Shown here: positions 1 to 30,535 of the stretch, one piece after another
Layout of the letters: every line of letters starts with the position of its first letter
How positions within the stretch are numbered: position 1 is the stretch's first letter
Assembly (NCBI RefSeq): GCF_000002425.4
Contig: NC_037267.1
Location: forward strand, 4,777,407 to 4,841,406
DNA: 64,000 nt
Direction of reading: 5' to 3'
DNA from: Physcomitrium patens
Taxonomy: Eukaryota; Streptophyta; Bryopsida; Funariales; Funariaceae
Notes under the pieces: generated by a model
Told to the model about the DNA's origin: nothing
What the model saw: the letters and a program-made list of their open reading frames with translations, nothing else
Database searches by the model: none
Made by a program: the position numbers and the translations under genes

Positions 1-1344
1 TACCACGCAAGTGATCTTGCCTCCCCCCCATAGTGAAAAAATGGACCCCCCTAGACGGCAGAACTTCCGCACTAGCCAGAGATAGAACTCCATTCGTAGT
101 TCGGTGTTGTATACTCGAAACTCCAACTCGTTGTAGCCGTGAGGCTTGGTAGACATTGGTGTGTCGGGAGGAAGAAATTCCAGTCGGATCTCGACACGGT
201 CACGGGCGTCTACATCATGCAAGAAAGTGAGAATTACCTTCCTTGGCGCTCGCCCAACTGAGAAATCTCCAAGACGCTCGAACTTTGCAGGAATATAGTC
301 TGCAAAGTCGATGTGCAGGCCTTTGAAGGCCCCGTGCGAGTTGATGAAGTCCATTGTCTGCAGTCTATGGCTCTTGCAGCCGAATATGAAGAGCCACCTC
401 TTTCCATCTACAAAGTATGGACTTCTATTCTTCTCCAGAGCAGCAAGAACTTGATGGAAATAAGGGATGGTGTTTTGTTCTATAAGATCATCCTCCACCC
501 CCGGAAGCTCTCGGAGGTCGATGATTCCAAGCCCGATATCACGAGCGCTCTCGTTATTCCATGCGTTGTCTTTCTACTTACTAAAGGTGTTCGTCCTCAC
601 ATCATAAGTCTTGTAATAGGCACACGCGTATGGCACCTGGAACCCGTTCTTATGATTCAAGAAAACTTTGAAGAACTCTGCTGCGGCCGGAGAAATCTGT
701 GCGCAGGTCTTGTTCTTGGACTTCAGTTGCTTCGCTTCAGCAAAGTAGGATTCTCCAGGCCGCTCAAGGAGGACGTTTATTGACGCACTCGTGATATTAC
801 GAGCCGTCTTGAACGCCTTCCACTTCTCATGAATGAGGTCGCCCTCTGCATTGATTAATCCCAAGCTTGGGTCTATGTTGTCGAGTTCCTTCTTCACTAG
901 CTGCTTCCTCTTCCTCCTCTCCACCCAGTCCTTCGTGCTATAGCAGCTCTCAAGCACAGACGAGATTGATTTAATCGTCACCTTTGGATAGGGGAACTTT
1001 CGCTTCTCCCCAGATTGGTTAAGAAGGTGTTTCGCGAGCCTCTCCAGATCATTCAGGCTCAAGTTGCCGAGCCACTTGAAGTACTCGCGCCTGAGCATGC
1101 AACTCTCCTGCTTCCAGTTCTCTTTCTCGTTGAACTTCGCAGAGGTGTCGGGGTTGTAGAGCTCCCCGTGGGCAGCACTGAAAATAACCTCACTCCAGAG
1201 GATGTAGATGGGCTCCGGGGCAGTGATGATCTTTAGCTCAATGACGAGCTTAAGCTTCTCCTCTGCACCCTTGGTGCGCGAAATTCTCAATGACTTGTTG
1301 ACGTCAATCAATGAGAACCTCAAAGTCATTGCTTTCTCGAATGC
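1..1344 (-). pseudogene. Downstream part of the leftward element gene; function unknown, runs off the left edge
   Basis: Leftward coding sequence lies on the far side of a probable intron (1345-1624). The first exon sequence after the acceptor begins A-F-E-K-A-M-T-L-R-F and stays open to about 574. Good coding-like sequence in another frame then runs to the window edge, so the gene continues outside. The 574-1329 part is charged and alpha-helical looking, with no motif I recognise. Near the edge a stretch containing WLVRKFCRLGGSIFSLWGG loosely recalls the core of DNA methyltransferases (an aliphatic helix, then G-x-x-x-x-x-x-x-G-G), but this is weak. GC content is far higher than in the retroelement DNA further right. 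The gene looks broken about once here. I treat it as part of the same mobile-element-like unit as the ParB-like region upstream. Confidence 0.5.
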
Positions 1345-1624
1345 CTGCGAGCAAATAGAAGAAGTTAAATATTTATTTTCTGAATCATAGCAAAGAATTC
1401 AATTCAAAAGAGGGAAAATAGCAAATCAGATCGAGTTGAGCTGATATCCTCTGAACAAGCCTTCATAATATCAGACTATTAAGTCACTCGAGAAATGTCG
1501 TCACATCAAAAATAATTCGACTGTGATGGAAAGTACAACCGTTCAGATCAGATCGACTCGATTTGATCCCAAGTCAAGATATTCACATAATACAAATCAG
1601 ATCGACTCGATCTGATTCTCTTAC
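1345..1624 (-). other. Probable intron of the leftward element gene, carrying three palindromes
   Basis: On the minus strand a strong donor (TTCAAG then GTAAGA) lies at 1625/1624. A strong acceptor, with a pyrimidine-rich tract ending CTCGCAG then GCATTC, lies at 1345/1344. The reading frame is open on both sides in the same phase. The 280-bp intron holds three copies of the element palindrome, at 1424-1445, 1547-1567 and 1594-1617. Confidence 0.6.
1424..1617. repeat. Intronic cluster of three 23-bp palindromes
   Basis: Copies sit at 1424-1445 (imperfect), 1547-1567 (nearly perfect) and 1594-1617 (perfect). They use mainly the A-type half-site AATCAGATCGA, one central base, then its reverse complement. 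Confidence 0.85.
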
Positions 1625-3108
1625 CTTGAATCCCTTCGTTCTACATTGAATGTCCGAAGCACTTCTCTTAGCTGTCGTGTCGGCGGCTATAATCTGGGAA
1701 GGATTCGCTGGGCATCCCATACTCACCCAAACCGATCATGCTCCCAGGATGTTGGTCGCCTATGACGGCTGTATCATCTGAAAGTGATTGATCCGATTGT
1801 AGTATGCTGATATGGACCTCAGTATCTCTGCATCGCTCGACCATACAATAAAGCAACTTCAGACGCGGAAGTCGCTCTTCACATCGTCATCAACCACGTT
1901 ACTCTCGTCGGTTATGACCCTACTGGCTGCAACACTGTGCTGCCCGTTAATGACAAAAAACTCTCCGTCTTTGATCTCCTCCCACGTTGTCGGCTTTGAG
2001 GTTCTGTTCGTGGGCATTACGCATAATGTTTGCGGGCCTTTCGATCGGGCAGGTTCATGAGATACACCACCATTGCATCAACGAGCTTGTCCTCTTTCGA
2101 TCGAATGTTGAACTCCGTAGGTACATCAATGAATTTATCTATGGAGATGCCCTTCTTTGTATTGACCGCGAAGATGTATGCATCTTCGCACTCTGACCAG
2201 AACTTCTTGTACACTGCGGTGATGTGCTTGAAGTCGGGCTTACTCTGGGGTTCATACGACGATGGAACGTCGGTCATCGCATCGGCAAGGGTCAGATGTT
2301 GAACCTCCGACACCTGGGAGCTACCCGAAGCCGCTCAACGATCTCCACAAGACGCAATGGGGCTACTTCTCGTCGATCCTCGCCCTGCAGAGCTGGACCG
2401 TGGCTTCGCTTTTCCCCGGCTGTTTAAAGGCGCAGGAGCTGCTGTATCGACCGAAGCTTGACTTCCACCTACTGCTCGAACTTCTCTCCGGACAGACCGC
2501 GGGACAACTAATAGTTTCTGCGCCTCTAGTTTACCTTTGATGACGGAGAAATCTTGCAGAAGTGAATTTATCTTGGTGCAGAGCCGCTTGCCAAAAGCTG
2601 GAGACCCGTCCTTCTCGTTGTAGTCCCCCCTGTCGATTTTTGCCTCGAGTTGCTTCACCTCTCCGCTGTATTCAGTGGGCTCGAGGCTTTCGAGGAAGGG
2701 AGACATTGTGAAGGGGATCCGCTTCGAGGGTATGAGAACTGTGAAGTGATATTCATCTGTGGGATCTCTCAAAACTCCGGTAGTTACGCACTTCACCAGG
2801 ATCATGTCGCCGTCTAAGTACTCAACATCCTTTACCCGCTCTGCTGTCGTGAGCTTCAAGAATGCTTGGCTTTTCTTGAATTTGAACAAAAACTGGATGT
2901 CGTGCGTGAATGGAATCATAGCTAGACTCCATGCCTCGAGCTCCTCTGGGTCAAAAAACTTCCACGAGGTTCCATAAATCAACCGCGGGTCGGTCTCGTC
3001 ATCGTCATCGGCACGCCGGTCGAGCTTATCCAAGTACATGGACAATAATGCCTTGATGTCCTCCATTTGCAACAGACGTAGAAGCAAACATGTCAGATTA
3101 TGTCCCAT
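1625..3108 (-). pseudogene. Leftward element gene with ParB/sulfiredoxin-like N-domain
   Basis: Minus-strand coding sequence begins at an ATG near 3064-3108. The first ~250 codons are acidic then mixed (D-D-D-D-E-T-D-P-R, later P-F-T-M-S-P-F-L-E-S-L-E-P) and end in a Ser/Arg/Gly-rich linker; I do not recognise this part. Next comes a ParB/Srx-fold pattern: ISIDKF-x-D-V-P-x-E-FNIR, a helix with V-D-A-M, then about 30 residues on FFVINGQHSVAAS (about 1935-1970). This matches the ParB N-terminal layout of beta strand, P-x-x-x-x-x-R, helix, then G-x-H-R-x-x-A, except that Ser stands where Arg is usual. ParB-N domains bind CTP or act as nucleases in bacteria; the role here is unknown. The gene looks broken, with about two or three breaks. 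It is transcribed away from the palindrome arrays. Confidence 0.55.
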
Positions 3109-3202
3109 CGACTTAATGACATAGTTACTCCAATGAACGTTTTAAACTCTTCTTACTATATCAAATGTATTATTGGACACAAGAACAATAATCTTATATA
3201 TG

Positions 3203-3414
3203 AAATCAGATCGACTCGAGCTGATTTATGGTCCTCGTATTGCGTAGGGTGTTCTATGTAGGCCAATGTTAGTATTTTGGAAAACAACGATTACGAATTT
3301 ATGATTTTAGTCAGGTTTTCCAATTGTATGATTCATCTTAATGTATTTTTAATGCCGAAATATGGAAATCTACTATATATTCTTTACGTCAAATCAGATC
3401 GACTCGATCTGATT
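3203..3414. repeat. Two isolated 23-bp palindromes upstream of the leftward gene
   Basis: 3203-3227 is a hybrid, with an A-type left half and a C-type right half. 3391-3414 is a perfect A-type copy. They lie about 95 and 285 bp upstream of the start of the leftward gene, where promoter elements would be expected. Confidence 0.85.
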
Positions 3415-3746
3415 CTTTGGTGTTATGCGTAGTAATTTTGTAAAGGATTCTGTACCGGAGGAAAGAGTGAACTCGGGGTACATGGAGTTTATGCGTCAAC
3501 GATGACGCTAGAATTATAAGTTTTCTACATTAGATTTAATTAAAATGGTGTCATTTTTTATGCTAATATTATACTTCATTTTATATTCCTATGTGAATGT
3601 AGTAATGGATATGCATTCAGCAATTTTTAAGAGAAGTTAACTTAATTTGTTTGGATTATGACTAATTATTCTGGCCTCAATAATATTTCGGTGCATAAAC
3701 TAAATCAGAATATTTGAAGGAGAATGTAGCTTCATGCGATTGAACG
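3415..3746. other. AT-rich spacer of the element
   Basis: No coding frame or repeat was recognised between the isolated palindromes and array I. Confidence 0.4.
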
Positions 3747-4265
3747 AATCAGCTCGAATCGAGCTGATCTTATTTGAAGACTGAATTCCTCCTTTTACGC
3801 GTTCATTGAAATGAAGCTCGTAGATCAGCTCGATTCGAGCTGATAGTATGTCGAAGCTATCGTAAGAATCAGCTCGAATCGAGCTGATGACATGTCGGGG
3901 CTATCGCAAGATATAGTTAGAGTTTAGCTCATGGTAGGTCGAACGATTGCAAGATTCAGAGTTTGTGCAGCTGATGGCTGGTAAGGGAGATTGCATGAAT
4001 CAGCTCGAGTCGAGCTGATGGCAGGTAAGGAAGATTGTATGAATCAGCTCGAGTCGAGCTGATTGCAGGTAAGGGAGATTGCATGAATCAGCTCGAGTCG
4101 AGCTGATGGCAGGTCAGAGCGATCGCACGAATCAGCTCGAGTCGAGCTGATGGCAGGTCAGAGCGATCGCACGAATCAGCCCGAGTCGAGCTGATCTTCG
4201 TCCACGTCAGAGTTTCTATTGCCATGTGTATGATAATAAGAAACTCCTGAATCAGCTCGGCTCGA
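3747..4265. repeat. Palindrome array I, about 44-bp period
   Basis: Copies of the palindrome (half-site AATCAGCTCGA, one base, reverse complement) begin at 3747, 3824, 3867, about 3910 (degenerate), 3954 (degenerate), 3998, 4042, 4086, 4130 and 4174, with a half-lost copy near 4248. From 3998 to 4174 the spacing is exactly 44 bp; before that it is 43-44 bp. The intervening 21-22 bp are also conserved (ATGGCAGGTAAGGGAGATTG and relatives). The array is therefore a true tandem repeat whose unit contains a palindrome, not a CRISPR array with unique spacers. Confidence 0.9.
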
Positions 4266-6513
4266 ATGAAACGACACTGATTTTGTAGAGAATTACCTGT
4301 GGAAACTAGATCTGCGAGATACTGATGACGTAAAGGCGCAACTGTGATTCCTCACGCGATGTGCGCCCGGCCGCGGACGTCCTCTTATTCTACCCTATTC
4401 GTTATCGTACGAATACAAAAACCGCGCACCGTGACACTACAGATCCAAAACAACACCAGGCAGTAAAGGAGGTCAATTTCACAACCAATAAATGAAATGC
4501 AACGTCAAACACAAATGTGATTGAAAACGAAGAGGAAGAGACCCAAGAATTCGACACCGTAGACAAATACAAGTTGGCACTTACAGGATGGGAACTTGCT
4601 GGGGAACAGGATGAGAAACGACGTTCTTTTCTATAAAATCTCAGTTTCAAATCATTCCTATAATGTGTGTACAGAAAGTGTATAATGACCGTTTTCTGAC
4701 ATTTCACAACAAAATCCAAATGATTGAAAACAAAACATGCCTTTAAATAAAACCAATTCTTCACACTAGCAGGTCGAACTAATACAATCAGTGGATTGCA
4801 TTTGGTTGTATATGTAAAGTTTTTTAAAAAGAATAATTTTAATTTACATGATTATTTTAAATTTCCCAACTTTTTTCATCTACTCCAATTTCTTAATCAA
4901 AAAACCATTCATGTCATTGCAAATACTACCTTTTCTTCCATTTCATTCTCAAAACTTGAATCAATGTGAATAAAAAAATACTAATTAATTACTCAAGTAT
5001 CACATTCAAGACATTCATTCATTTTGAACGTCTAATGAATAGTTTACTTTTAGTACATGAATAAAATAAGGAATTTTGAAGTTCCCAAATCAAATGTGAC
5101 TAATGTGACTAATGTGACTAATCCCACGACAACGGATTACTTATACTACTCACATTAACCTACAAACTTCAAAATTCCATAATATATTCATATCATGTTT
5201 ATAAATTAACCTTTATTATTTTAAATTATTCTTTCTTTTTATAAATTAATCTCAAGTCGAGGATAACTTTTCCATCTATAATAAAAATTTCAATTAAAAA
5301 TATAAGATCAATCAAAAAATCAATTACAGATATAAGATCAGTATTAAATTAAGACTATGAAAAGACTCAATTTAACGAATGTTGATATTATTGACATGCG
5401 CAATAATTTATACAAGATATGCATAATACAAGGACTATTACTTAATATGTTTTATTTTAGTTTTTCTTTTACCACATAATCGTATAAATATAGTCAATGC
5501 TATGCATTTAAGATGATTACATATCGACACATAAAATATCTGAAGCATATTTACTTTTAGAGGTATGCACACATTTGCAATGAAGGATTAAACAAACAAG
5601 TAATTCACTTGTCCTTCTTTCATATAATCATTTTATCACTTATCAAAGAATAAAATGTCATAGCAAGATAATTGATATATGAAGTAGCATACAAAATTGA
5701 ACTTGAAATATGAACGTTTTAGAAATCCGCATCCCACATCCCGATTGATGTCCTGTCAGCATCAATTCTCCACGGAGTCCTGCCCTGCAGCAACATACCC
5801 TCGACACCCAAGTATCGAACCGTGCCTGGATCCTTGGCATTGCCCCTGTCTATTGCGATGGACGGTTCAGATCTACTATGGAGGATCGACGGTGGATAAC
5901 GTCGTGCCCAGGGTAGGTGGGCTGCGTTGACTGCATTCCCGCAGAGTCAGTTCTGCCAATGTCAATCCTGTGTTTTGCATTCCTCTTTGCTCGCACTCTA
6001 GCTACATTCTTCGATTTGGCGGCTTAGTCGACCTCCAGTGTCCAAGTGGTATGCCCTCCGAACGTCCCTTCGTTTGTCTACTTACGATTGATAACGCACG
6101 AGCGCTAGAATTAATTTTGCTCTCATTCTCTGTTCTTGCAATTTCCAATTTTTAGGTGAGCTTCCATGTCTGAATTGAAGCGGGTTCCGATGTTGCCCAT
6201 TGTGTTGGTTTTCTTCTTATGTTTTGTACGTCTTCATGTCCAGCCGTTTGGACTGTTGCGGTCATCCCCCAGCAAGAGTAATGTATGGATTAGTCTTCTC
6301 TTTGTGCTCTCGTTTATTATATTTTCGGCGAGTGAGGTCCTGCAATGACCTAATGATGCGGAGGGGCATTTTTTTTCAATATAGTACTGTTCATCCAGAA
6401 TTCGGTACAATCTTGTCCTGCTACAGTAACACGTACCCATACAATTCCGCAATAGTGCAGATGACTCGCTTTATAACTATGTCTCTCTGATAATTTATAA
6501 TATGTCCTATGGA
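4266..6513. other. Spacer between the two palindrome arrays, no supported gene
   Basis: 4350-4400 is GC-rich. 4780-5700 is strongly AT-rich and holds a foldback at 5057-5197. 5700-6480 is more balanced, with several short overlapping frames on both strands but no codon pattern, motif or splice structure I trust. It could hold an untranslated leader or a small lost gene. Confidence 0.4.
5057..5197. repeat. Imperfect foldback of about 140 bp
   Basis: The left arm contains GGAATTTTGAAGTT and the right arm its inverse AACTTCAAAATTCC. Inside, TAATGTGACTAATCC faces GGATTACTTATACTACTCACATTA, closing near 5125. The left arm also contains three direct copies of ATGTGACTA. The shape is MITE or foldback-like; I saw no target duplication. 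Confidence 0.5.
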
Positions 6514-7674
6514 AATTAGCTCGACTCGAGCTGATTTTCTGAAAGGTCCAATACGTCCTCGTTGTTCAAAACTATTGTCAAGAATCAGTTGGAGTAGAAC
6601 TGATTCTATGAAAGGTCGACTGCGTCATTGTTATTGAATACAATCACCTAAAATTAGCTCGAGTCGAGCTGATTCTCTGAGACGTCCAGTAAGTCTTCAT
6701 TCAAAGGTATTAATGTCAACAATCAGCTCGAGTCGAGCTGATTCTCTGAGAGGTGTATTACGTCGTCGATATTGAAAACAAACGTTCAGAATCAGATCGA
6801 GTCGAGCTGATTCTATGAGAGGTCCAAAATTTTTGATTGGTCCAATACGTCCTTGTTATTGAAAACTGTTGTCTAGAATCAGCTCGAGTCGAGCTGATTC
6901 TCTGAGACGTCGAGTGCGTCTTCATTGAATAGTATTAAGGTCAACAATCAGCTCGAGTCGAGCTGATTCTATGAGAGGTAATTTACGTCCTCAGTACTAA
7001 AAACAATCGTTCAGAATCAGATCGAGCCGAGCTGATTCTTTAAGAAGTCCATATTTTCTGAAAGGTCCCATGCGTCCTTGTTATTAAATTTTTTTGTATA
7101 GAATGAGCTTAAGTTGAGATGATTCTATGAATGGTCCAGTTCGTCATTTTTATTGTTTTCAAAAATCTAAAATCAGCTCGAGTTGAGCTAATTCTCTGAG
7201 ACGTCCATTACGTCTTCATTCAAAAGTATTAATGTCAACAATGAGCTTGAGTCGAGCTGATTGTCTGAGAGGTGTATTACGTCGTCGATACTGAAAACAA
7301 ACGTTTAGAATCAGATCGAGTCGAGCTGATTCTCTGAGAGGTCCAGAACATCCTCGTTAAAGAAAACTAACAGCTAGAATCAGCTTCATTCGAGCTGATT
7401 CAATGACAGGTCCAGTTTGTCCTCGTTATTGAAGACCAGTATCCAGAATCAAGTCGAATCGAGCTGATTCTGTGTGAGGTCCAGTTCGTCCTCCTTTAAA
7501 TAACTGACAATCTGAATCAGCTCGAGTGGAGCTGATTTTCTGAGTGCTCTATTACGCCCTCGTATTGGAGAACCAATGTCCATAATCAACTTCAGTTGAG
7601 CTAGTTTAATTAGACGTCAGGTACGTCCTTGTGAGTGAATTCTAACATCCATTATCAGCTCGACTCGAGCTGAT
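6514..7674. repeat. Palindrome array II, 69-bp period with higher-order spacer pattern
   Basis: Seventeen palindromes begin at 6514, 6583, 6652, 6721, 6790, 6877, 6946, 7015, 7102, 7171, 7240, 7309, 7378, 7447, 7515, 7583 and 7652. Spacing is 69 bp, with 68 bp twice and 87 bp (69+18) twice. The 46-bp spacers start TCTGAGAGGTCCAGTACGTC or similar. They fall into types that recur in order: type B (…TATTAATGTCAAC) follows 6652, 6877 and 7171; type C (…AAACAAACGTTCAG) follows 6721, 6946 and 7240; the next type follows 6790, 7015 and 7309. Palindromes right after type C (6790, 7015, 7309) all carry the hybrid A-type/C-type half-sites, which confirms block amplification. Confidence 0.92.
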
Positions 7675-7795
7675 GTACGTGTCACGTATTCTTATCAGTG
7701 CGGAGATGTGCGCTGCCATTCGAAAATTGGCATTCACTGAAATGTGGTTCATCGTTTTGCTTTGTACAATTTTTTCTCATCCATACATGTCCGCT

Positions 7796-7817
7796 AATCA
7801 GATCGACTCGATCTGAT
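7796..7817. promoter_or_regulatory. Gene-proximal A-type palindrome upstream of the DUF7869-type gene
   Basis: A perfect A-type palindrome (half-site AATCAGATCGA) lies 144 bp beyond the last array II unit, just before the rightward gene. A-type copies occur only beside or inside genes here, and C-type copies in the arrays. A transcriptional or binding role is inference. Confidence 0.55.
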
Positions 7818-7837
7818 AAGTATGAATACTGCCTCTT

Positions 7838-10753
7838 GTGTCTGGATGTTGGCGTAAGGTTTCTTTCATCGTTTTGATGAAGTGGTTGTTTTTGTTCAGA
7901 GGACTCGTAAATGCTTCGGAATACAAAGTGTACATGGCTCATTCATCAGGGGATGATTTTGAGGACGCTGAATCCATCAGTCCTGCAATTCCCGAGTGCG
8001 AAGGACTTCCTCGGCGTCTGTGGATTACAAAGTGTGTGACCCTCTATAATGCACATGGAAAATTGGTAGGCAAGGGTACATGCCATAGTGTTAATTCTGA
8101 TCTTGTGCTTAGCGCTAATGGTCCTCTTGGTGACACTCAGGTTGCAGTCCACATTTGCAAAACTCATTCCCAAGATGATATCCTCCAAGATCTTGTGTAC
8201 GCATTTGTGGCGTGGCCTACAAAGTTAGTCCATTGCCATGGTGCTAGTCTCCACGACCACGAGGCTAAGGATAACTTCAATCAATTGCACGCAGCTCGGG
8301 CAAACTGGACGCTCTCAAAGTCCAAAAGGCCATATATGAATGGTATCCGAAATTCCTCTCAAGAGTCACCTCTAAAGTACAAAAAACTCCTCAGCGAAGA
8401 GTCTATCAACTTGGTGTCATGTAAAGTGTGCTGTATGAGGAACTGCGTGCAGCCTTTTCCAAGAGAGATGATTAAATCATTCCGCGAGCGAATGTATAAT
8501 GGATCTACATTCCAGTTCAGAGCCCATATGAAGTTAGATGTGCATAGGGCGGTTCATAGAGATGCAAGCGGGCGGAAGATGGTGACAGTGGAGGGGATCA
8601 CCGTGTGCTTGCGTGCATGGATGCATATTTCTGGGGTATCAGAAGCAACATTCTACTGCTACCAAGCATATGTAAAAGCTAATCGGGAGGCGAGGGACCA
8701 TGGCAACACTGGATTACCGAAGCCAAGGAAGCACACTGAACAAGCGACAGCTACGTTGAAGTGTATCCTCGAGAAGGAGACAGATCACATGCCACATCGT
8801 ACTTGCAGTACAAAATCTGGGGAGAAGATGGTTTCGATGATTCTCCTAGCTACCTTTCAATGGAAAGATCAAATTCCAAAAATCAATGAAGTTAATACTG
8901 CTTTTGGATTGAGGGAGGTCTCTTCTTCAAACTTGAGCAAGATCAGAGCATCTAGGTTTCCAGAATTCGATGTCAAAAGACCCGGAGATAATTTTGCACG
9001 ATGTGGTACCTGCGACAAGTACAAAGAACTAAGGAAGGGTGCCATTGGAGGATTTGAACAGGCTATGAAGTGGATGATGAAGTTGGAGAAACATCTTGGT
9101 ATTGCTCGTGCTCATAGGGAGTACTATTATGCTAAGCGATACTACTCGCAAACTTATCCCGATGAATGCGTGACAATCATGCATGACAAGATGGATCATG
9201 CCAAAACTACATCTCCGGTATTTTCACATAAGAACAAAGAATTGGATGCTTTGGTGAAGCTACCTGTATCTGTGACAGGCATAATTGCTCATGGACACGG
9301 TGACGTGCGTTATGCTCATTATGGATTGGATATCTTTCCCCATGATTCAAATTATACTATTGGATCGATGACAAAGTTGTTGCGTGATTTGGAGGAACCT
9401 CCAAAATCATCTTCCCGAGAATTATTTTTGGGCTCTGGATCTACAGCTCTATTTCGTAGCATTCTCAAGGGTGCGGAGATGTGCAAAACATCACTAGATC
9501 CACAACCTGAGAGATTAGTAGGAGCAACACCATTGCCACCCATTTTGAATGTGCAAATGGATAATGCCACAGGGAAGAACAAAAATAGATATATTTTTGC
9601 TTTTTGGTCCCTACTTGTGGCAAAGCGAATCTTTCGCGAAGTGTATGTAAATTTCATGATAGTAGGACATACACATGATGACATCGACGCCTTATTTGGA
9701 AGATGGAGCATGCTTCTGAAGAAAGAGAACTTCCCTACTATCCCTGCACTTATGAAGTCGTTCATGGACGTAGAATCTATTCCCACTATCCCTCATCTTA
9801 TCGAGGAGGTGTCGGATTTTAAAAATTTTATACTTGGATCTATTTTAGACAAAAGTGAAGTTCTTGTAGGTCACACAAAACCACAATAAGTCAAATTTTA
9901 CTTGGATGCAACAGGGTGTCCAAAAATGAAATACAAATTGTTTTATACCGATGTAGAGTGGCTAGGAGAGGAAGGAGCAGGCATTAAAATTTGGAAAGAG
10001 GATGCACAGGGATGTAGTTTGTGGCCTCGTGGTGAGCCATCGCCTGTTCCACAATGTACAATGACAGGTGTGGAGGATATTGAGAAAGGAATATCAGGGT
10101 TTGTGAAATATTGGGAGGATTTGTGCAATGTTGATGTCACTGGAGAGTATCGAAGACGGTATGAGCATTTGGTGGTGTATTGGCGTAACGTGAAGGATGC
10201 ATTGTATGAACCAATCATTCCTTGTAATGTTCTGAGAGAAGGTTTTTGGCCAATTACCCGTGTGAGAGAAAATCTTGCAGATCAATTATCAGATGATGGT
10301 GAGGATCATGAGGAATTTGGAGAAGATGATCCATATGTTGGTCCTCTGAGAGGTCGCCCACAACCATCTTTTAGGGTAGGTCGAGATGTTCAAGAAGGAT
10401 ATTTTGTTGCAATTCGACCTGCAGAAGGTGAAATACAACCAGTGTGGATAGCTAGGGCTTTGTCGAACCCAGATTGTAATCCTGAGAAGCCAAACTACAT
10501 TCTCATTCAGTATTTTCATCCGACCTTAAGAAGTGTGGATGTACAACAGTTCTATACAGGTTGGGATAGCGAGAGAGGTTTGCATTGGAAGATCGAAGAG
10601 AATGAACCTCCTGTTTGGGAAGAAACGAATGCTCTTATGACAGCGTGGTCACCACGAATCAGAAAGGACACAAGTGAATGCGTGATCAAAATTCCGGCTC
10701 CACAAATTGAAATAATCAAGCAGAGTCTTGCATCGTATATTAAAAATGTATGA
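7838..10753 (+). pseudogene. DUF7869-type putative RNase H-fold transposase/recombinase gene
   Basis: Two long frames, 683 and 283 codons, lie back to back and read as one gene-sized coding region with about one break. The first plausible ATG is near 7877, but a pyrimidine-AG acceptor-like site near 7895-7900 means an upstream exon is possible. The layout fits the DUF7869 family as I know it. There is a Cys cluster CKVCCMRNC-x-x-x-FP (about residues 195-207), R-C-G-T-C-D-K (389-394), a long helix, then D-x-M-D-H-x-K (450-455). These are followed by QMDNATGKNKN (573-583) and VGHTHDDIDALFGRWS (609-624). The spaced acidic residues suggest an RNase H-like D-D-D/E core; that role is inferred. The C-terminal part has G-Y-F-V-A-I…P-V-W-I-A-R-A-L…Y-x-G-W-D, like the chromatin-reader-like tails of such proteins. 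It diverges from the ParB-like gene across the palindrome arrays. Confidence 0.65.
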
Positions 10754-11200
10754 ATGAAATATACAAATTTGTCATTGTGATTTGAATATTCATATTTTGG
10801 TAACATAGTTTTTAAAATTTTATAGTATTGTGACAAAGGTAGTAGAACTCGTAGTGTATAATAAGTGGTTTTAGTTTGATTTAGTTTTATAGATAACTAT
10901 TGTAGATATTCCTTAACTATAGTTTTATATGTATACAAAAATTACTTGTATAAAGTTATATCAAAATATTTGATTAAGTTAGAGCATTGTTATTTTCAAT
11001 CACATCTGTATTTGACACCTTGCAAAACAATAAAAACTCTCATTTTAAAGGAAATTACTTATCACAAGTACTGAATTGCTACCTCATTGACCTTATTTGA
11101 CTATACATATAATCCAATTTTTGTTACTTCTATTTGATTGTTTTATTTTGAGAGATACCAAACCTCTCAAAATAATGAATATTGTGTTATAGATGCTTTT
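10754..11200. other. AT-rich spacer, no feature seen
   Basis: GC content drops sharply after the DUF7869-type gene. No terminal repeat of the element could be recognised, so its right boundary is not defined. Confidence 0.4.
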
Positions 11201-13640
11201 TAGAAATCCACATAGTTATTTCTTAGCTCCAAAAGCATCTCTTAATTTTTTTTTTATACCTCTTATGGATAGATTTTACAATAATAAATTGCATAGCTTT
11301 TCTTCCATCTCAATTATGAATCTTGGTATTATATGAACCATCATCTAAGACTCTAGTTTCTATTCTAGCAGTTGTAATATAATACTGACCAAGTATTACT
11401 AGATATGTAGCAGAGTTTTGCTCCACTTCTACATCTCCAATCCTAATCTTTACAGCTAAACAAGTTCCATATAAATCGCCTTATTGGTTGTTTGTAGCTC
11501 TAACTATCTAACCATGATTGATATCAATTGACCACTTTTTCTTCTCATATATCTGTCTTGATATGATGATTTCAAATCCATGATTAGCTAAGGCCAAAAT
11601 TGGATCTTTAGAGTCTCCCAACGTCACATATATCTCCGTAGTAGCTCTAAATTAATAAAGAACTAAATAGCTACTACTTCTCATTTCATCATTACTATAT
11701 TTAGAGTAAGTATTTACACAAGCTTCTCATACATTCTTCTTTATCTCGATAAATTTCAAAGATATGCATTCTATTTGATACTCTTCTATAGCTCCAACAT
11801 GTTATTATAAAGCCTCATTTTCCATATCAACTTTAATTCTAATTTTTGACAATGCAAATTATGCAAATATCTACTCTATCTCTTTTTCCTCATCCATAGT
11901 TATCCATGTATCTAATACTCCCACCATAATAGCTTCAATTTCCATCTATTTCTTCCTCTTTATCATATTGATGATCAATTCATGGAAATCTTTCTTGCCT
12001 ATATTAAGAACTTGTCTTAGAATGAATTGAATTATTGTATCTAAGATCTTTTCATCTAAAATATTCTTCATATCTGTAGATGATTCAATATCTAATTAAA
12101 GCTTATAAGCATGATTCTTATATTTAGGTTTTCTTGTATCATCTTTCTCCTTTTCTTTGTTCTCCTTCTACCATTCTTTTGATAATGGTGCACCACCAAG
12201 ATGAGTAGAAGAAGGAATCTTCTCTGATTTTTGCTCCTTAGAAGCTTCTTTATTTCTTGGAGAGCTCCTCTTAATTTTAGGCTCAATAACATCTTCTTTA
12301 TGAATAGCTCTATCTCTTTTTTTGTCAACCATAATATCATATAGATCATCATTATGTTTGTCTCTACATAAATATAATTTAATATTAATAGCATCAACTA
12401 GATCATTCTATTCAATCATGTTTTTGATAGCTTTAGCTTCTTTGATTATGACTTCTGTAGTTGGTAAGGAATTAGTCTTAACTACTTTTTGTTCTATTAT
12501 AATAGAATAAGACTCAGCTCTCTCTCCTTATTTAGCATTATTCTTTGATGTTTATTCCTCTATCAATTTTTTTATGCCACCTTTTCCAAAATTAGTTATT
12601 AAAAGGCTCATCTGATCCTTTGAATCTTATCTTGCCTTCTTTGAAATAAATAATACCATACTTGATTGAAACCTTATCACTGTTACACTCAACACACTTG
12701 TCATTTGGATTGTCACACCACATACATCTCTCTATAAATCTCTTTGAGCCTTCAATTGTCTTTGATGAATTTGCCATATGGGATTTCTTCAATTTAGTCA
12801 TTTCTACCTTCAAATCTTATATGTCCTTGATCAATTCTTTAAAAGTACTATCCTTAATAGTCTTAATCACCTTTTGAGGTGGCACTTAATTTTGAAATAT
12901 AGGCATTGGTTTCAACCTTGATATTAAATCACAACACTTAATTTTTTGTTGATTAATCAAAAGTCCCACTATCTCCTTTACTAGCCTCTAATTATTGACA
13001 AAACCACTCTTAGATGCCTTATTTGCTAGATAAAAGAGCAGCTTGTCTTCTAATTATTTATTAATTCATTGTAAGAATAACCTAATTTTTCTTGTTTCCA
13101 AGAGCTACTTTTCTTGTCGTGGTAATTGTCCAAACTTAGTCTCAAATTTCCTTCATTAATTCATTTGGAGCCATTTGATTCCTTGACCTTTGCTCAATCT
13201 ACTCCAAAAAAATCTGTTTTGTCATTCTTTCTAAGTCTTCTTAAAAAAATTCATCTTTCAAATGTTCTTCAAATTTCTTCCATGATATAGTCTGAGTATG
13301 CAATTCTTGCATCCTTTCTTTGATTTCTGGTACCATTGCCAAATCAAAGGTGGTAATCATCTTCATTTTTTAAACTTGATGCACCTTTATTTCATATGTA
13401 TAAATTTTGAGGAACTTAGTGATATTCATCCCATCAAACCATCCAATCTTATCCACTACTACTTGTAAAGCTTTGGTGGTATTCCTATCCTCTCCATGCA
13501 CATGTTGCCTTTTTTCCATAAATTGAGCAAATCCCTTGAAAAAATCATGGGCATCTATTCAACTTAGTAATACAAATTTTGATATTTGATCTCCCATCTT
13601 AACTTATTAAAAAATTTAGTGACTTAAGGCTTTTTTAATA
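11200..13640 (-). mobile_element. LTR-retrotransposon gag-protease fossil, leftward
   Basis: Minus-strand remnants in order: a gag start near 13600 (pattern GDQISKFVL then a helical capsid-like stretch with F-L-K-I-Y-T-Y-E); a variant zinc knuckle C-M-W-C-D-x-P-N-D-K-C-V-E-C near 12720; then K-G-I/G-I-I-Y-F-K-E-G-K-I and N-F-G-K-G-G. After this comes a lysine-rich linker, a helical block (12000-12100) and a retropepsin-like region near 11400-11600 (I-D-I-N-H-G, then K-I-R-I-G-D-V-E-V). This order matches a Ty3-like gag-protease. It is old, AT-biased and broken many times. No reverse transcriptase or clear LTR was seen. Confidence 0.6.
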
Positions 13641-14886
13641 GAAGCACTAATATGTCAGGGTAGAAAGAGTTTACTTTAAGAAAGTGTTGAACTTTTGGCT
13701 GCCACTAATTCCTCAATTAAGTCTAAGATATTAAAGTTCCAAATATATATATATATATTATTTTTTCTTTTAGGGCAATTATATCAATACATTAGCCTAA
13801 GTATAAAAAAAAGTTATTTAAATATATGATAAAATATCATAAAACCTTATATATCATTAAAAAAAAATTCCAAATTTTACCAATTCATATTTCACGATTG
13901 AAAAATCCAAACAAACTAAAATTTTACATGAAGTACTAATATAATTTCAACAACTACCGAAACAAATTTTAACTATAAATTTGTTATAAATTTTGAGATA
14001 TTACCAAAATCCTAACAATAGCTTCAAATCCTTGCTTATATATACATGTGTGTAATTTTCTTCATATATCACAAACTAAGTATTAAAATACTATGAATCT
14101 TTTATTTATATCTTTTCAACTTAATAACACATACTTATAGAATTTTGAACCAAAAATTCGTCTAGAAACTCAAGATATGGCTCCAACCATTACTATCAAT
14201 AAAATGACTCACTTACTCTCTTTGAACTACATGTGCTATCTTCAATGCCCTATAACTCCTTCATCTAGACTTAGAATTCATCAAATAGTATATGAAATAT
14301 GTAACTGAGAAAGTGTTTTCTTCAATCCTAGTCACCAATCCTTTGTTTCTCTCCGTAAGCATATATTATGTCCTAAAGAGTGACAATAGATATGAAATTG
14401 AACTTTGAGCACCTATAACTCCTTCATAAAGACTCCAAATCATACAAAATTTGCCCTCAAATCATATCCAAAAACCTAAAATTGTTGATCTTAGCCTCTA
14501 AAGCTCAAATGACCTCAAAAAAATCTTAATCTCTAATAAGGCCTCGGGCAGTCTCCTTGAAGTCTATTGGGCATGACATTTGACCACTAGAGATGAAGAT
14601 CATCACTCCTTGCCTTCATCCAACCATACTTTATTTTCATCCTTTCTAATAAGCCTCTTAATAGTTTAAACTTTCATCTTTTGACTCCAACCTTCTCTTA
14701 AGCTTTATACTAAATATCTAAATCCTACATAATATAAATACTATAATCAAAATAGATAAATCTCTAAATAAATTTTCTTATATTAATTCTCTTTAAATTT
14801 ACTTACTAACCATTCTAATCTACATCAAGATTTACAAATATAGTATATGTTTTAATTAATTTTTATATATTATAAGTAATTATAGT
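13640..14886. other. AT-rich stretch, probably retroelement flank, no gene
   Basis: It contains a short TA run near 13745-13760 and low-complexity DNA. It may include a decayed LTR or leader of the leftward fossil, but I could not pair any repeat. Confidence 0.35.
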
Positions 14887-15270
14887 ATGACAATAGTTAT
14901 CATGGTGGAGACCACCTCTAGAATCTTCTAGAAAAGTAATTATCTTGATTGGATCTACCATTAAGAATATTCTAAAAAAATCCAAGATACTTGAACAAAG
15001 TATAAATAGGACTAACTAAGGCCATTTAGGACATTTTGTCAAGTATGGCTTTAGACTCTTTCTCTCAATAAAGTTTGGTTTTCTTGTTCTATTCTATTTG
15101 ATTTTGTTTCATTCTATCTAGTTCTATTCTCTTTCACTGAGTCATATCTTTCATGTTTCTTTCTATTTAGTTACTTTCAAATTTTTTCTAGTGTCTTTAA
15201 TCTTATATTGTATTGAGGTCTTTATTATTATAGATTTGATAAGGTTTTAGACCTTAGAATATCTGATTCT
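14887..15270 (+). repeat. LTR-like block at the 5' end of fossil W
   Basis: It starts TGACAATAG, has a TATAAATAGG promoter-like box near 15000, and ends before the primer-site remnant. It does not resemble the LTRs of X, Y or the 3' LTR assigned to W. Confidence 0.45.
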
Positions 15271-16145
15271 ATTTTAAGTATACTTATAATATTAGAGCTT
15301 TATCTTTTTTTAATTAAGAGTAAAAAATTATTTTTTCTTCATGAGTCATAAGTATATTAGAAGTTAATGATTACTTTCTTTTAAATTGATATTATTATTA
15401 GAATTTTTTTTTTATTTTTAAGTCTTTTTTTTACTTATTTTAAGTAATATTAGACATCTTTATTTACTTAGTATTAGTATGGCAAAGATTGTTAAAATAA
15501 AGAATACAATGGCACAAATGCAAGAGCAATTGAGAGAATTAATACTTGTAATATATCAACTCAATTTATCACAACAAAAAGCAACATGATTAATTAGAAG
15601 ATATAGAGATGATTGGAGCTGCTTTAACATCTGCATCAAATTATATAATTTTTTTATAGTGGAACATTGTTCTAGCATAAAAAAATCAAAAATTATCTTA
15701 TTTGAAAAGTTTAATGGCACAAGATCAAAGTTTTGAAGATTTATTAATCAAGTACAAGTGGTAATTGAACTTCAATTCCAAAACTATCCAACTCCAAGAT
15801 CATAAGTTAGGTTTATTGGAATATTACTTTTAAGTTCTATATTATCATGATTTTATTTTTTTTTAAATAGCAAGATCCAATATTAGATAATTTAAATGCC
15901 ATTTTTGTCGAGATTTGATTCATGTATAGGAAATATGATGTAATTTGTATTACAATCAATAAATTTTATATCTTGTAATAAAACAATCAATCTCTAATGT
16001 TATATGCTTTAAAGTTTTGACAACTTGTAATTGATGTCAAGAGGAATGATATTGCCATCATTAACCAATTTCTTTATGAATTACAATAGAAGCTAAAAAA
16101 ATTGATACTCAACTTATCTAATCCTTAAATATTGAATTAAGCAAT

Positions 16146-16694
16146 TATCACAAATATATATCTATTACAATTATTATCTTGATAATATGAATAGGTAGAA
16201 GTAAGTAAAAATAGATTAATTTCATAATACCTCCTAAAAAAGATTCTTAGAAGCTTTTTGGATGCTATTTTGACTTTGTATGAATTTATAATTAATTTAT
16301 AGATTAGAAACTTGATCAACAAGCTAACTACATGCCATATGTGTTGGTAGCTTGCAAAATAAGCTAATTATATGGCATCCATATAAAAAATATACCTTGC
16401 AAGTTAAGATACGTGTCATGCAAAGTCAACACATTTTTGGAGGTTTTATAGAATGTTGCCACATAGATCTTAAGTAGATAGTATATATAGAGGTAAGAGT
16501 GAAGCTTGATTCACTCTTGTTAATTCCTTTCGTGCTTCTAATGTAGTTTCAAGTGTATCTAATTTTTTTGTCTTTTAAAAATAGTCATTTTAATTTTATT
16601 TTTAATATACATACTTCTTTAATTCTACTTTATCATATTTCTTTGAGAGAATTTTATTCATTTATTTACTTTCATCAAGTTTTTATCTTTGACA
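16146..16694 (+). repeat. 5' LTR of fossil X
   Basis: Begins TATCA and ends TTTGACA. Pairs with 25474-26059. Confidence 0.7.
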
Positions 16695-17838
16695 AATTGA
16701 CAAGTATATACTTATAATATGAGAATTTTATCTTTTTTTTATTAAAAATAGATTATTCTTTTTTTTTATAAGACTTAAGCATATTAAGAGTTGCAGATTA
16801 TCCTCTTCTAAATTGATATTATTCTTAGTATTTTTTCTTTATTTTCAAGTCTTTTCTTCTATTTGCCTTGAAAATTATTAGACATCTTTTATTCTTTAAG
16901 TATTATTATGACAGAGCTTCTTGAAATAAAAAGTGCAATGGCACAAATGTAACAGTAATTGAAGGAGTTAATGCTTACAATGCATCAATTCAATTTACCA
17001 CCACTTGGAGCAAGAAGTATAGCAAGGAGCAAAGATATAGAGATGACTACAGCTACTTCAACATTTGTACCAAATCATGTCTCTTCTCCTCTAGTGGAGT
17101 ACTCTTCCAATGTTAGAAAACCAAGGGTTGCACTACTTGACAAATTTGATGGCACAAGGTCAAAGTTTTGAGGATTTATCAATCAAGCACAACTTGTGAA
17201 TTAACTTCAACCTCAAAGCTATCCAACTCTAGAATGGCAAGATTCATTGGTACATTCTTTTCAGATTCACCACGATCATGATTTTTTTCTTTTTTTGAAT
17301 GATGAGATCTAATACTAGAAAATCTAGAGGCTTTTTTCGAAAAGTTTTGATCTATGTATATAGAATATGATACAATTTGTATTGCAATCAATAAGATCTA
17401 TATTTTGTAACAAGACAATTAATCAATAATATTATATACTTCACAATTTTGACAACTTGCAATTGATATTAAATAGAATAATATTGTACTTGTTAGCCAA
17501 TTTTTTTATAGATTACAATATGAGGTAAAAAAAATTGATACTCAACTTATCTAATCTTCAAACATTGAGTCAAGCAATTGATTTTGCTGTGAGGTGTGAC
17601 AATCCACTTTTTGAATTTTGATCTAAGAATTGCACAAGTACATCTTAATATTATTATGATTCAATAATAACATTAATATTTTTTCAACACATGCATTTGG
17701 AAGTAGAAGATATGTAAATTGATTCAATATATTTCAAACCACTTATTGAGTAAGTAAAGAGTCATTTTTGTCAGGAAGAATTATTCTTGTATTATTGAGA
17801 ACCTAAGCACATTGCTCAATATTATCCAAAGAAGCAGC

Positions 17839-18399
17839 TATCATAGACATACTCATGTAAGCCAGTAATTATATATACAAATAGGTAGAACTAAGTAAAA
17901 GTAGATAAAAATAAGTAAATTCTATAGTATTTGATATGAAAGCTTTCTAGAAGCTTCATAGACACTGCTTTGACTTCATAGGTATCTTTAAATGACTTTT
18001 TGGATTAAAAACGTAGTCAACAAGTTGGCCATGTGCCACACATGTTGTTAGCTTGAAGACCAAGCTAACTATGTGGCCCACAGATAGAAAAACTTATCTT
18101 GTAAGTCAAGGCATGTATCCTACAAAGTCAACACATATTGGAGGTCCTATAGAACATCACCATGTAGTTCCTAGTTAGATAGTATATGTAGAGACAAGAG
18201 TGAAGCCTTCTTCACTCTTAACAACTCTTTTCTTGCTTCTAGTCTAGTTTCAAGGGTCTCTAATTTTCTTATCTTTTGGCAATAGCCATTCCAGTTTTTC
18301 TTTCAATATATATACTTATTTATTTATATTTTGTTACCTTTCTTTGAGTGAAGGCTCACTTGTGTGAATTATTTTTTCATCGAGTTTTTGTCCTTGACA
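17839..18399 (+). repeat. 5' LTR of fossil Y
   Basis: TATCATAGACATACTC … CCTTGACA. Paired with the 3' copy starting TGTCACGGACATACTC. Confidence 0.75.
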
Positions 18400-19146
18400 G
18401 ATTGACAAGAGTATATCTACAATATCAGAGCTTTGTCTAATCTTGATTAAGAGTGGATTACCCATTTTTCTTGATAAGATATAAGCATATTAGAAGTTAC
18501 GGATTACCCTCTTCTAAACTGATATTGTCTTTAGTATTTTCTTTATTCTCAAGTCCTCTCTTCTATTTGTCTTGAGCAATATTAGACATCTTTTTTTTTC
18601 TAAGAGTTATCATGGCAGAACTTGTTGAAATGAAGAATGGAATGGCACAAATGCAAGAACGATTGAGAGAGTTAATGCTTGCGATGCATCAATTCAATTT
18701 ACCACCACAAGGAACAACAAGATTCACAGGAAGTGAAGATATAGAAATGGTTGGAGTTGCTCCAATATCTGCACCAAATCATTTCTTTTTTCCTATGGTG
18801 GAACGTCCTTCCAGTATTAGAGAACCAAGAATTGTCCTACCCTAGAAGTTTGATGGCACCAGATCCAAATTTCGAGGATTTATCAATCAAGTGTAACTTG
18901 TGATTAAACTTCAATCCCATAGCTATCCAACTCCAGGATCGCAAGTTAGATTCATTGATACGCTTCTTTCAGGTTCAGCACTATCGTGATTTTTATCTTT
19001 TCTTGAACGACGAGAACCAATATAGGATAATCTAGAGGCTTTTCTGACAGAGTTTCGATCCATGTATGGAGAATATGATGTAATTCGTATTGCAACCAAT
19101 AAGATCCATATTTTATGACAAGGCAATCGATCAGTAATGTTGTATG

Positions 19147-19706
19147 TGTCACGGACATACTCATGTAAGTGAGTAATTACATACACAAATAGGTAGAAGT
19201 AAGTTAAATAGATAAAAGTAAGATAATTCTATAGTATTTAATATGGAAGCTTCTTAAAAGCTTCATAGATGCTACTTTGACTTCACAGGTGTCTTTAATT
19301 GGCTTTTTGGATTAGAAACGTGGTCAATAAGTTGGCCATGTGCCACATATGTTGTTAGCTTGAAGACCAAGCTAACTATGTGGCCCACACATAGAAAAAC
19401 TTGCCTTATAAGTCAAGGCATGTGTCCTACAAAGTCAAGACATATTAGAGGTCCTATAGAACATCGCCACGTAGCCCCTAGTTAGATAGTATATATAGAG
19501 ACAAGAATGAAGCCTTCTTCACTCTTGTCAACTCCTTTCTTGCTTCTAGTTTAGTTTCAAGGGTCTCTAGTTTTCTTGTCTTTCGGCAATAGCCATTCTA
19601 GTTTCTCTTTCAATATACATACTTTTTTATTTATATTTTTTTATATTTCTTTGAATGAAGACTCACTTGTGTGAATTACTTTTTCATCGAGTTCTTGTCC
19701 TTGACA
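19147..19706 (+). repeat. 3' LTR of fossil Y
   Basis: TGTCACGGACATACTC … CCTTGACA, 560 bp. It keeps intact TG/CA-type ends. Confidence 0.8.
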
Positions 19707-21649
19707 GCAATACAACCATAAAATGAAGAATACATCCATCAAAAAAGATATTATGACAAAATATAAGTTTTTCTAGCTATAATTGGAACCGTGTAATTAT
19801 AATCTTGTATATCAAATAATGAAAGTCCTATTCTCTTTCCAAAATCCTTTCTTTGTTTTACAATAAATATTGCTTTAAGACCTAAATATCACAAAACCTC
19901 TACCTTATTAGATTCAAAAATCTCAATATATTTCTTAGATGAAGAATTTGATAAATGACATAGCATACTTTAAGTAAAGAAAACTAAAGCTATTCACATA
20001 GGAGTCATAGATGGTCATCCATTACCTTCAAAAAATATTACTGATGAAACTCTTCCCATAAAAGTAACAAATAATAGTCATAGTAGCTTTGTAATATTTA
20101 ATATTATTAGATCTCTTTCTAATCCAATTATTATAAATTTATCATAACTAAAAAAATATAATCCAAACATAGATTAAATCTTTCATAGTCTTGACTTTTC
20201 TGAAAGTATAACTAAGAGTATAGTTGATCAAGTAGAAAGTCATAAATTTAGTGCAATTAAACATGTATTTGTAGGTGCAAGAGCTTTTTTGCATGCTACA
20301 AAAGAATGATTACTTTGTATCATTTATATTGTACATGTTTCTAATGGTAGAAAGACTTCAAGTGGCATTTAAAGCCAATATCAAGATTTCAAGTTATATT
20401 TGAAAAGAAGAATATAAATATTCTATTAAAATATTGTCCCTATAACTACTCAATTGACCTTCAAGAAAGAATTTGATCACCATTTGGACCAATATATAGT
20501 TTATCACAAAATGAATTAGTTGAACTCAAACAGTATATTGAAGAAAATTTGGCAGAGAATTTCATACGCCATTTCAAAACTTCAGCAAGAACTTTAATTT
20601 TATTTATGAAGAAAAAAGATAGATCATTGTGGATGTGTATTGATTATTAAAGATTCAATAAAAATACCATCAAAAATAGATATCTATTACTTTTGATATC
20701 AAGACTTCTTAATTAATTGAATTAAGCTACAATCTATACAAAAATAGACCTATAAAGAACATACAATCTGGTATGCATCAAAAAAAGAGATGAACGAAAG
20801 ATTGTTTTTCAAACAAGCTATGGATATTTTAAATACAATGTCATGCCTTTTAAACTTATAAATGTATTGAAAACTTTTCAATATTTAATGAACGATGTTT
20901 TTTTAAAAAATTTAGATGAATTTACTATTTGTTACCTACATGACATCTTAATCTATTTTAAATATACAAAAGAACATAAACTTTATGTTTGTTGTGTATT
21001 ACAAAAATTAAGAAATGTAGTATTCTATGCTAAGATAGAAAAGTGTATATTCTATTCTACTCAGGTCGACTTCTTAGGATACATCATTTCAAATGATGGA
21101 CTTATGATGGATCCTAAAAAAGTTCAAATTATTATGGATTGGAAGTTCTCAAAAACAGTAAAAGATATCCAATATTTTTTGAGATTTGCCAACTACTACT
21201 AGATCTTTATCAAGAACTTTTCTAAAGTTGCAACTCCACTTATACATTTGACTTATAAAGACAAACTTCAATAGAATCAAGAAGCGGAAGTAGTATTTCA
21301 AGCTTTGAAGACAACTTTTATTTTTGCACCAATCTTATATCACATCACCTTTTTTAAGTTATTTTTAATAAAAATAGAGGCATCAAACTTTTCTTTAGAT
21401 ATTGTATTATCACAAATGGGAACAAATGATAAAATTCATCTAATAACTTTTTATTCAAAAAAAAATTCAATAGTCTAAATCAACTACAAGATTCATGACA
21501 AAAAACTTCTTGTAATTGTGGATTTGTTTTAAGAATAGTACTATTATCTATAAGGAGCTTTTAATCTAATCACTATTTAATTTGACTACAAGAATCTTTA
21601 ATATTTTATATCAAAATGTATTTTGAATTGTCACCAAGTTTGTTGTCGT

Positions 21650-25473: not shown

Positions 25474-25479
25474 TATCAT

Positions 25480-25529
<50 letters not shown>

Positions 25530-26059
25530 ACTATAATTAGTATCTAGATAATATAAATATATAGAAGTATATAAAAATATATTAATTTCATAATATCTCC
25601 TAAAAAAGATTTTTAAAAACTTCTTAAATGATTTTTTGACTTTACTTGTGTTTGTAGTTAATTGATAGGTTAGAAACTTGATCAAGCAGCTAACCATGTG
25701 CCACATGTAATGGTAGCTTACAGAATAAGTTAACTATATGGCGTCCATATAGAAAATATACCTTACAAATTAAAATATGTATCATGTATAGTCAACACAT
25801 TTTTGGAGGTCTTATAGAACGTTGTCATATAGATCTTAGGTAGATAGTATATATAGAGGCAAGAGTGAAGTTTGCTTCACTCTTTTCAACTTCTTTCTTG
25901 CTTTTAATCTAGTTTCAAGAGTATTTAGTTTTTTTGTCTTTTGACAATAGCCATTCAAGTTTTTTTTTAATATACATATTTTTTTATTTCTACTTTGTCC
26001 TATTTCTTTGAAAGAATTTCATTTTTTTATTTGCTTTTATTGAGTTCTTATTCTTAACA
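25474..26059 (+). repeat. 3' LTR of fossil X with internal TA microsatellite
   Basis: Starts TATCATAG and contains a TA run of about 45 bp at 25482-25527, absent from the 5' partner. Ends near TTCTTAACA. Confidence 0.7.
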
Positions 26060-28939: not shown

Positions 28940-29437
28940 ATATATACATATTTATGCCAATAGTTATATAGATAATATAAATAAGTAGAAATAATTAAAA
29001 ATAGATAAATATAATAATATTTTATAGATAAGATTCTTAGAAGCTTTATAGATGCACTTTTATCTTTATATGTGTCGAAAGGTGATTAATAGGTTGAATA
29101 TTTGGCCGACAAATTAGCCATGTATTCTATGTATTGGTAGCTTAAGATTCAACCTGATCATGTAGTGTATGTATAAAAAACTTGCTTTACAAGTTAAGAC
29201 ATGTGTCTTACAAATTGAACATGTATCAAAGGTCCTATGAAACGTTGTTACATAGCTCTTAATTAGATAGTATATATGCTTTTAGCTTAATTTCAAGAGT
29301 CTCTAATTATCTTATCTTTTGGCCATAGCCATTTTAATTTCTTTTTAATATACATACTTTCTTATTTCTATTTTTTCATCTTGCTTTCAAAAGGTCTCAT
29401 TTATTTATTTTTTTTTATTGAATTCTTATCCTTGAAA
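28940..29437 (+). repeat. 3' LTR assigned to fossil W
   Basis: Homologous to the X and Y LTRs (AATAAGTAGAAATAATTAAA, TTGGTAGCTTAAG, TTAGATAGTATATATG). Ends near CCTTGAAA. Confidence 0.6.

Positions 29438-30486: not shown

Positions 30487-30535
<49 letters not shown>

What the first reader, a model, noticed from the sequence alone, without database searches (positions are those of the whole stretch)
1..10753. Possible undescribed element: ParB-like gene and DUF7869-type gene diverging from palindrome arrays
Seen: two divergent multi-domain genes, both GC-richer than the surrounding DNA, are separated by about 4.7 kb. That interval contains two highly regular arrays of one 23-bp palindrome, and the same palindrome sits in an intron and just upstream of both genes. 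Known: DUF7869 proteins are widespread in plants, algae and animals and look like RNase H-fold recombinases; ParB-N domains belong to bacterial partition and DNA-processing proteins. Inference: the palindromes are binding sites for one of the two proteins, and the whole is a single mobile or self-maintaining element. I do not know a named transposon superfamily with this set.
Basis: partly seen in the sequence, partly recalled or inferred. Interest (0 to 1): 0.88.

Follow-up and report, generated by a model that had tools for sequence, protein, structure and literature searches.

The report
Moss transposon carrying palindromic binding arrays
This is the right-hand three quarters of a 15-kilobase jumping gene of the moss Physcomitrium patens that carries two large genes and dozens of copies of one DNA palindrome, probably docking sites for its own regulator, much like the way some Arabidopsis transposons escape silencing.

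Summary
The genome is that of the moss Physcomitrium patens. The feature is most of a 15.27-kb DNA transposon running from 4.1 kb left of the window to base 11188, with 25-bp terminal inverted repeats and a 4-bp target duplication (identical in 7 of 8 copies with both ends found; the window copy matches at 3 of 4 bases). All 7 copies examined carry a divergent gene A, DUF7869 gene B and palindromes; in one only the start of A was fetched. Of 45 palindromes none lies in a coding exon; a third array (11 units, 31-bp period) sits in an intron left of the window. In contigs I take for mis-binned moss-like DNA, 13 of 13 core sites in 4.8 Mb lie beside A or B. Two further loci keep the core but change the arms. 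Gene A ends in a NIF/FCP1 domain; its 'ParB' label is unconfirmed. Best mechanism: an element-encoded protein, probably A, binds the palindromes and keeps the element expressed, as VANC does for VANDAL transposons. Binding and anti-silencing are inferred.

The parts
1624..3068 (-). Gene A exon 1 (N-terminal part and the VINGQHS motif that suggested ParB); interrupted by stops and a frame change in this copy
1347..1623 (-). Gene A intron 1 with three palindromes (1424, 1546, 1595); the one next to the splice donor recurs in relatives
1..1346 (-). Gene A exon 2 (weak match to the last part of N6/N4 DNA methylases in one relative); the gene continues left of the window through intron 2 (31-bp palindrome array) to a NIF/FCP1-like domain
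3204..3414 (.). Two palindromes upstream of gene A (3204-3226, 3392-3414)
3747..4196 (.). Palindrome array 1, 44-bp spacing
6514..7675 (.). Palindrome array 2, 17 sites, 69-bp spacing (two of 87, one of 68); by eye it lies in a predicted 5' intron of gene B in one annotated gene model (P0002)
7796..7818 (.). Single palindrome upstream of gene B
7934..10753 (+). Gene B, DUF7869 protein (PF25273), presumed RNase H-fold transposase; one in-frame stop at 9887-9889 in this copy
11164..11188 (-). Right terminal inverted repeat (25 bp); the left one begins about 4.1 kb left of window base 1
1..11188 (.). Part of the transposon that lies in the window (whole element: G000:C15:4773325-4788594, 15,270 bp)

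Best explanation
It is one copy of a 15-kb terminal-inverted-repeat DNA transposon. Shown: the ends, the 4-bp target duplication, the multicopy unit, and the association of gene A, gene B and palindromes in the copies examined. Inferred, in falling order of certainty: gene B (DUF7869) is the transposase; the palindromes are binding sites of an element-encoded protein (about 0.85); that protein is A (about 0.6), a multidomain protein with a C-terminal NIF/FCP1 (RNA polymerase II CTD phosphatase-like) domain; A bound at the arrays in its own introns and upstream of both genes keeps the element transcribed, counteracting host silencing, as VANC proteins do for VANDAL elements in Arabidopsis (about 0.5).
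For: Boundaries: similarity stops 433-450 bp past gene B in the 21 pairs of 7 copies; of 15 pairs of 6 copies on the left, the 10 among the five copies with enough flank stop 1242-1250 bp past gene A, and the 5 with C8 run to the end of its 592-bp stretch. Terminal repeats AACCCAATATTC.../AACACAATATTC... and 4-bp duplications identical in 7 of 8 copies with both ends found. 13 full-span gene B copies at 94-100% identity among 49 matches. Palindrome 20-mer: 179 + 185 strand-matches in 470 Mb, reversed control 0; the 100 rows listed (of 364) all lie within about 17 kb of a gene B copy. 0 of 45 sites in coding exons: 15 in gene A introns, 29 between the two gene starts, 1 past gene A; three arrays with different spacers and periods but the same palindrome. 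Intron-2 array varies from 7 to 12 units among the 6 copies where it was fetched. Other genome: the palindrome scan alone fetched gene A relatives (E to 3e-157); 13 of 13 core 15-mers lie on A or B contigs, reversed control 0. Arms differ by locus while most of the core is kept. In VANDAL21, motif-bearing tandem repeats lie in introns of VANC21 and VANB21 and upstream of VANA21, and VANC6 targets carry a different motif (PMC5735166, passages read).
Against: No binding, expression or methylation data. Gene A shares no detected domain with VANC. The NIF signature reads DLNG in the copies seen, where the second acidic residue of the usual signature (recalled) is Asn, so phosphatase activity is doubtful. 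The DUF7869 catalytic fold was not recovered by structure search. Both A and B contigs carry palindromes, so B is not excluded as the binder. One gene A contig (C74) has no match to the core 15-mer and carries a variant dyad instead, two of whose five copies also depart from the core. A genome-wide gene A search did not complete, so solo A copies are untested.
Confidence: 0.6

Rival explanations
1. The palindromes are sites for the transposase (protein B), used to assemble the transposition complex, like subterminal repeats of CACTA elements (recalled).
Against: The sites are internal: nearest to the left end about 1.2 kb, nearest to the right end about 3.4 kb. 15 of 45 sit in gene A introns.
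Confidence: 0.2
2. A ParB/parS-like partition or spreading system that keeps an extrachromosomal form of the element.
For: Palindromic site clusters resemble parS (recalled); the motif VINGQHS recalls ParB-N proteins.
Against: No significant ParB profile match, and the 8 copies with both ends found are integrated, 7 with an identical target duplication. A ParA-like gene was not searched for.
Confidence: 0.05
3. The palindromes act in RNA: hairpins in introns and leaders that control splicing or processing.
For: 15 of 45 sites are intronic, one next to the intron 1 donor in many relatives.
Against: 29 of 45 sites lie between the two gene starts and 1 past gene A; a dyad whose arms change together is equally expected of a protein site; tandem amplification with unrelated spacers is not needed for splicing (inference).
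Confidence: 0.08
4. An unrelated satellite or chance cluster next to two host genes.
For: Tandem structure.
Against: (association in two genomes, shared boundaries, target duplications).
Confidence: 0.01

Closest known systems
VANDAL transposons and their VANC anti-silencing proteins (Arabidopsis; PMC5735166, passages read; PMC10398659, abstract read)
   Same: Multi-gene transposon of a land plant; short motif in tandem repeats in introns and upstream of the transposase gene; motif differs between families; repeat number varies between copies.
   Different: Other transposase (DUF7869), no VANC-type domain found, motif is a 23-bp dyad rather than a 9-base motif, 4-bp duplication; no proof here of binding or anti-silencing.
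Sola superfamily of DNA transposons (recalled: DDD transposase, 4-bp duplications; Repbase lists Sola1-3, PMC4455052, passages read)
   Same: 4-bp target-site duplication; transposase presumed RNase H-fold.
   Different: Relationship of DUF7869 to Sola transposases not tested (no Sola sequences at hand; the founding paper is not held). Two large genes and palindrome arrays.
Fungal DNA transposons that encode a TET/JBP dioxygenase (PMC12730594, search listing and start of abstract only)
   Same: DNA transposon that carries a second gene which may act on host silencing.
   Different: Other cargo gene and other host group; palindrome arrays there were not looked for.

Membership tests
TIR DNA transposon (cut-and-paste type) | Terminal inverted repeats shared by copies | tested here: met
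   25-bp repeats; right one found in 13 of 13 copies (0-2 mismatches), left one in 8 of the 12 for which a stretch was fetched
TIR DNA transposon (cut-and-paste type) | Target-site duplication of fixed length | tested here: met
   4 bp identical in 7 of 8 copies with both ends; the window copy 3 of 4
TIR DNA transposon (cut-and-paste type) | Encodes a DDE/D RNase H-fold transposase | tested here: inconclusive
   DUF7869 match E 1e-39 and invariant Asp/His columns; the catalytic fold was not recovered
VANDAL/VANC | MULE-type transposase and VANC-type domain (domain names recalled) | tested here: not met
   Pfam scans of A and B proteins list neither
VANDAL/VANC | Family-specific motif repeats in non-coding parts of the element | tested here: met
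VANDAL/VANC | Protein binds the motif and removes silent marks | not testable with these tools
   needs binding and methylation assays
Sola superfamily | 4-bp duplications (recalled) | tested here: met
Sola superfamily | Transposase sequence similarity | not tested
   no Sola sequences available
ParB/parS partition | ParB-N domain | tested here: inconclusive
   Best hits DUF6551 E 0.063 (1 of 36 members) and phrog_22099 E 0.028 (2 of 36); gene A model pLDDT 42
N6/N4 DNA methylase | Motif I region | tested here: inconclusive
   PF01555 E 0.033 in one of two relatives; hhalign P 0.003 and 0.012 in the expected register but probability only 4-11%, controls P 0.33-0.58
N6/N4 DNA methylase | Catalytic DPPY-type motif | tested here: not met
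   none seen by eye in exon 2 of the copies aligned
NIF/FCP1 phosphatase-like | Pfam NIF domain above cut-off | tested here: met
   PF03031 43.7-56.1 bits in 4 of the 6 proteins scanned (P0121, P0122, P0124, P0126; the other two are a partial A relative and a B protein), cut-off 21.8; 53.8 bits in the MAG relative

The most novel reading that the evidence does not exclude
A previously undescribed bryophyte transposon family has evolved, independently of VANDAL/VANC, a sequence-specific self-recognition system: a chimeric protein (methylase-like and CTD-phosphatase-like parts) bound to dyad sites that multiply as tandem arrays and whose arms co-evolve with the protein in each lineage, so that the element switches on its own copies only.
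Probability: 0.45. Interest if true: 0.9.

Novelty: new variant of a known kind. Interest (0 to 1): 0.8.

Why it matters
DUF7869 proteins are numerous (211 hits) and the domain is named only as one of unknown function; here one is tied to a defined transposon with ends and target duplications, in a laboratory model moss. If the palindromes are read by protein A, this would be a second, unrelated case of sequence-specific anti-silencing by a plant transposon, and the locus-specific arms give a ready-made test of protein-DNA co-evolution. In the held library, a search for DUF7869 found 0 papers, and the listings of the searches with Physcomitrella/Physcomitrium transposon terms (titles and starts of abstracts seen) show no description of it.

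Full report
What the window is. Gene B finds named proteins of the moss Physcomitrium patens at 82-94% identity and gene A at 86-92%. The window lies in a 470-Mb genome at G000:C15:4777407-4841406, and that genome encodes the P. patens protein P0001 at 100% elsewhere.

The observation. Gene A (minus strand, from about 3068) and gene B (plus strand, 7934-10753) diverge. The palindrome occurs 32 times at 1424-7818 with up to 7 mismatches (31 with up to 6, none of them elsewhere in the window), with 0 expected in shuffles of a stricter scan. Taking 10 kb to the left, gene A continues through four more match blocks to about 2.84 kb left of the window, and intron 2 holds a third array of 11 palindromes at an exact 31-bp period. 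Over -3300 to 8200 there are 45 sites, 0 in coding exons; the three arrays have different spacers and periods, and in each the palindrome is more conserved than the spacer.

The proteins. Gene B matches DUF7869, as do most of its listed relatives, many of about 940 aa. Gene A in its longest relatives is about 1550 aa and ends in a NIF/FCP1 domain (PF03031; 4 of the 6 proteins scanned, the other two being a partial gene A relative and a gene B protein). An exon 2 stretch matches the last part of N6/N4 DNA methylases weakly (E 0.033 in one relative) and in the same register by profile comparison (P 0.003 and 0.012, probability only 4-11%, controls P 0.33-0.58); the catalytic motif is not seen. 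The ParB label rests on the motif VINGQHS and was not confirmed. The window copy is decayed: one in-frame stop in B, several stops and a frame change in A.

The element. The own-genome search found 49 gene B matches, 13 spanning the whole protein at 94-100%. Seven copies were examined, chosen by gene B. All seven have a divergent A and 28-44 palindromes (4 or fewer mismatches); in C21 only the start of A was in the fetched stretch and about 11 kb extra lies between the arrays. On the right, similarity stops 433-450 bp past gene B in the 21 pairs. On the left, 15 pairs of 6 copies were compared: the 10 among the five copies with enough flank stop 1242-1250 bp past gene A, and the 5 with C8 only run to the end of its 592-bp stretch. 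Those places hold 25-bp inverted repeats. The 4 bases outside are identical in 7 of 8 copies with both ends found; in the window copy they read ATGG and ATAG. Whole element here: 15,270 bp, to window base 11188. A 125-aa ORF past the gene A stop is open in 5 of 5 copies read.

The palindromes belong to the element. A 20-mer of the palindrome has 179 and 185 strand-matches in 470 Mb and 0 for the reversed control. Only the first 100 rows are listed; all 100 lie within about 17 kb of a gene B copy; the other 264 were not seen. Array 2 with its upstream site counts 18 in 7 of 7 copies, while the intron 2 array counts 7-12 in the six copies where it was fetched.

Other lineages. A scan of 257 billion prokaryote bases for the palindrome alone gave 9 loci. 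Two, in a MAG labelled Synechococcales, encode gene A relatives broken up like an intron-bearing gene, E down to 3e-157; palindromes lie upstream (L009), between match blocks (both) and downstream (L006). I take these contigs as mis-binned eukaryotic DNA. The same MAG has a full-length gene B relative at 53%. All 13 sites of the core 15-mer in its 4.8 Mb lie on three contigs that hold A or B, reversed control 0. A third gene A contig, C74, has no such core 15-mer; it has five sites of another dyad, TTTATCCTCGANTCGAGGATAAA or close to it, one between exons 1 and 2 and four upstream (contig orientation inferred from locus lengths). The gene B contig has three sites like GTTTAGCTCGANTCGAGCTAAAC. 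In protein databases, 14 gene A exon 1 ORFs run past the splice site: by eye 10 show the translated palindrome at the same place, 2 a degenerate form, and 2 end inside it. Four longest-contig lengths are shared between gene A relatives (52 hits) and the 120 gene B relatives listed of 211, which I read as the same contigs.

How it works. Shown: one mobile unit whose palindromes travel with it and are kept. Inferred: gene B moves it, and protein A reads the palindromes to keep the element on. The closest parallel is VANDAL21, where VANC binds a motif that forms tandem repeats in introns of VANC21 and VANB21 and upstream of VANA21, and where VANC6 has another motif (PMC5735166, passages read; PMC10398659, abstract read). 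The parallel is in layout and dynamics, not in protein family.

Noticed in passing
left of window, -3640 to -3263 (L012 6360-6737, minus strand): A 125-aa ORF between the gene A stop and the left end is open in 5 of 5 copies read: a possible third gene or a late exon of A.
   Followed up: partly
L001, L002, L003, L004, L007 (Kiloniellales MAG), L008 (Bosea), L005 (Caulobacter): Near-identical dyads (GATCAGATCGANTCGATCTGATC; in Caulobacter a perfect match to the moss form), one strong site per locus, in high-GC bacteria, five of them in one MAG; possibly a bacterial operator.
   Followed up: no
L006, L009, L011 and contig C74 of G001: A MAG labelled Synechococcales contains contigs with gene A and gene B relatives, gene A apparently with introns: likely mis-binned eukaryotic DNA.
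   Followed up: partly
G000:C19:292564, C19:82039, C3:25495017 and others: Distant DUF7869 relatives (about 36-47% identity) in the same moss genome, perhaps other families of the same kind; their palindromes were not examined.
   Followed up: no
G000:C21:3971880-3974696 copy: About 11 kb of extra sequence between array 1 and array 2, probably a nested insertion.
   Followed up: no
11189-31000: AT-rich stretch (GC 0.20-0.35) with no ORF of 170 aa or more right of the element, then GC-richer sequence from about 31 kb.
   Followed up: no
1424-1617, 3204-3414, 7796: Sites nearest the genes have at least one GATC-type inner arm (CAGATCGA; 6 of 6), array sites mostly CAGCTCGA: perhaps two classes of site.
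   Followed up: partly
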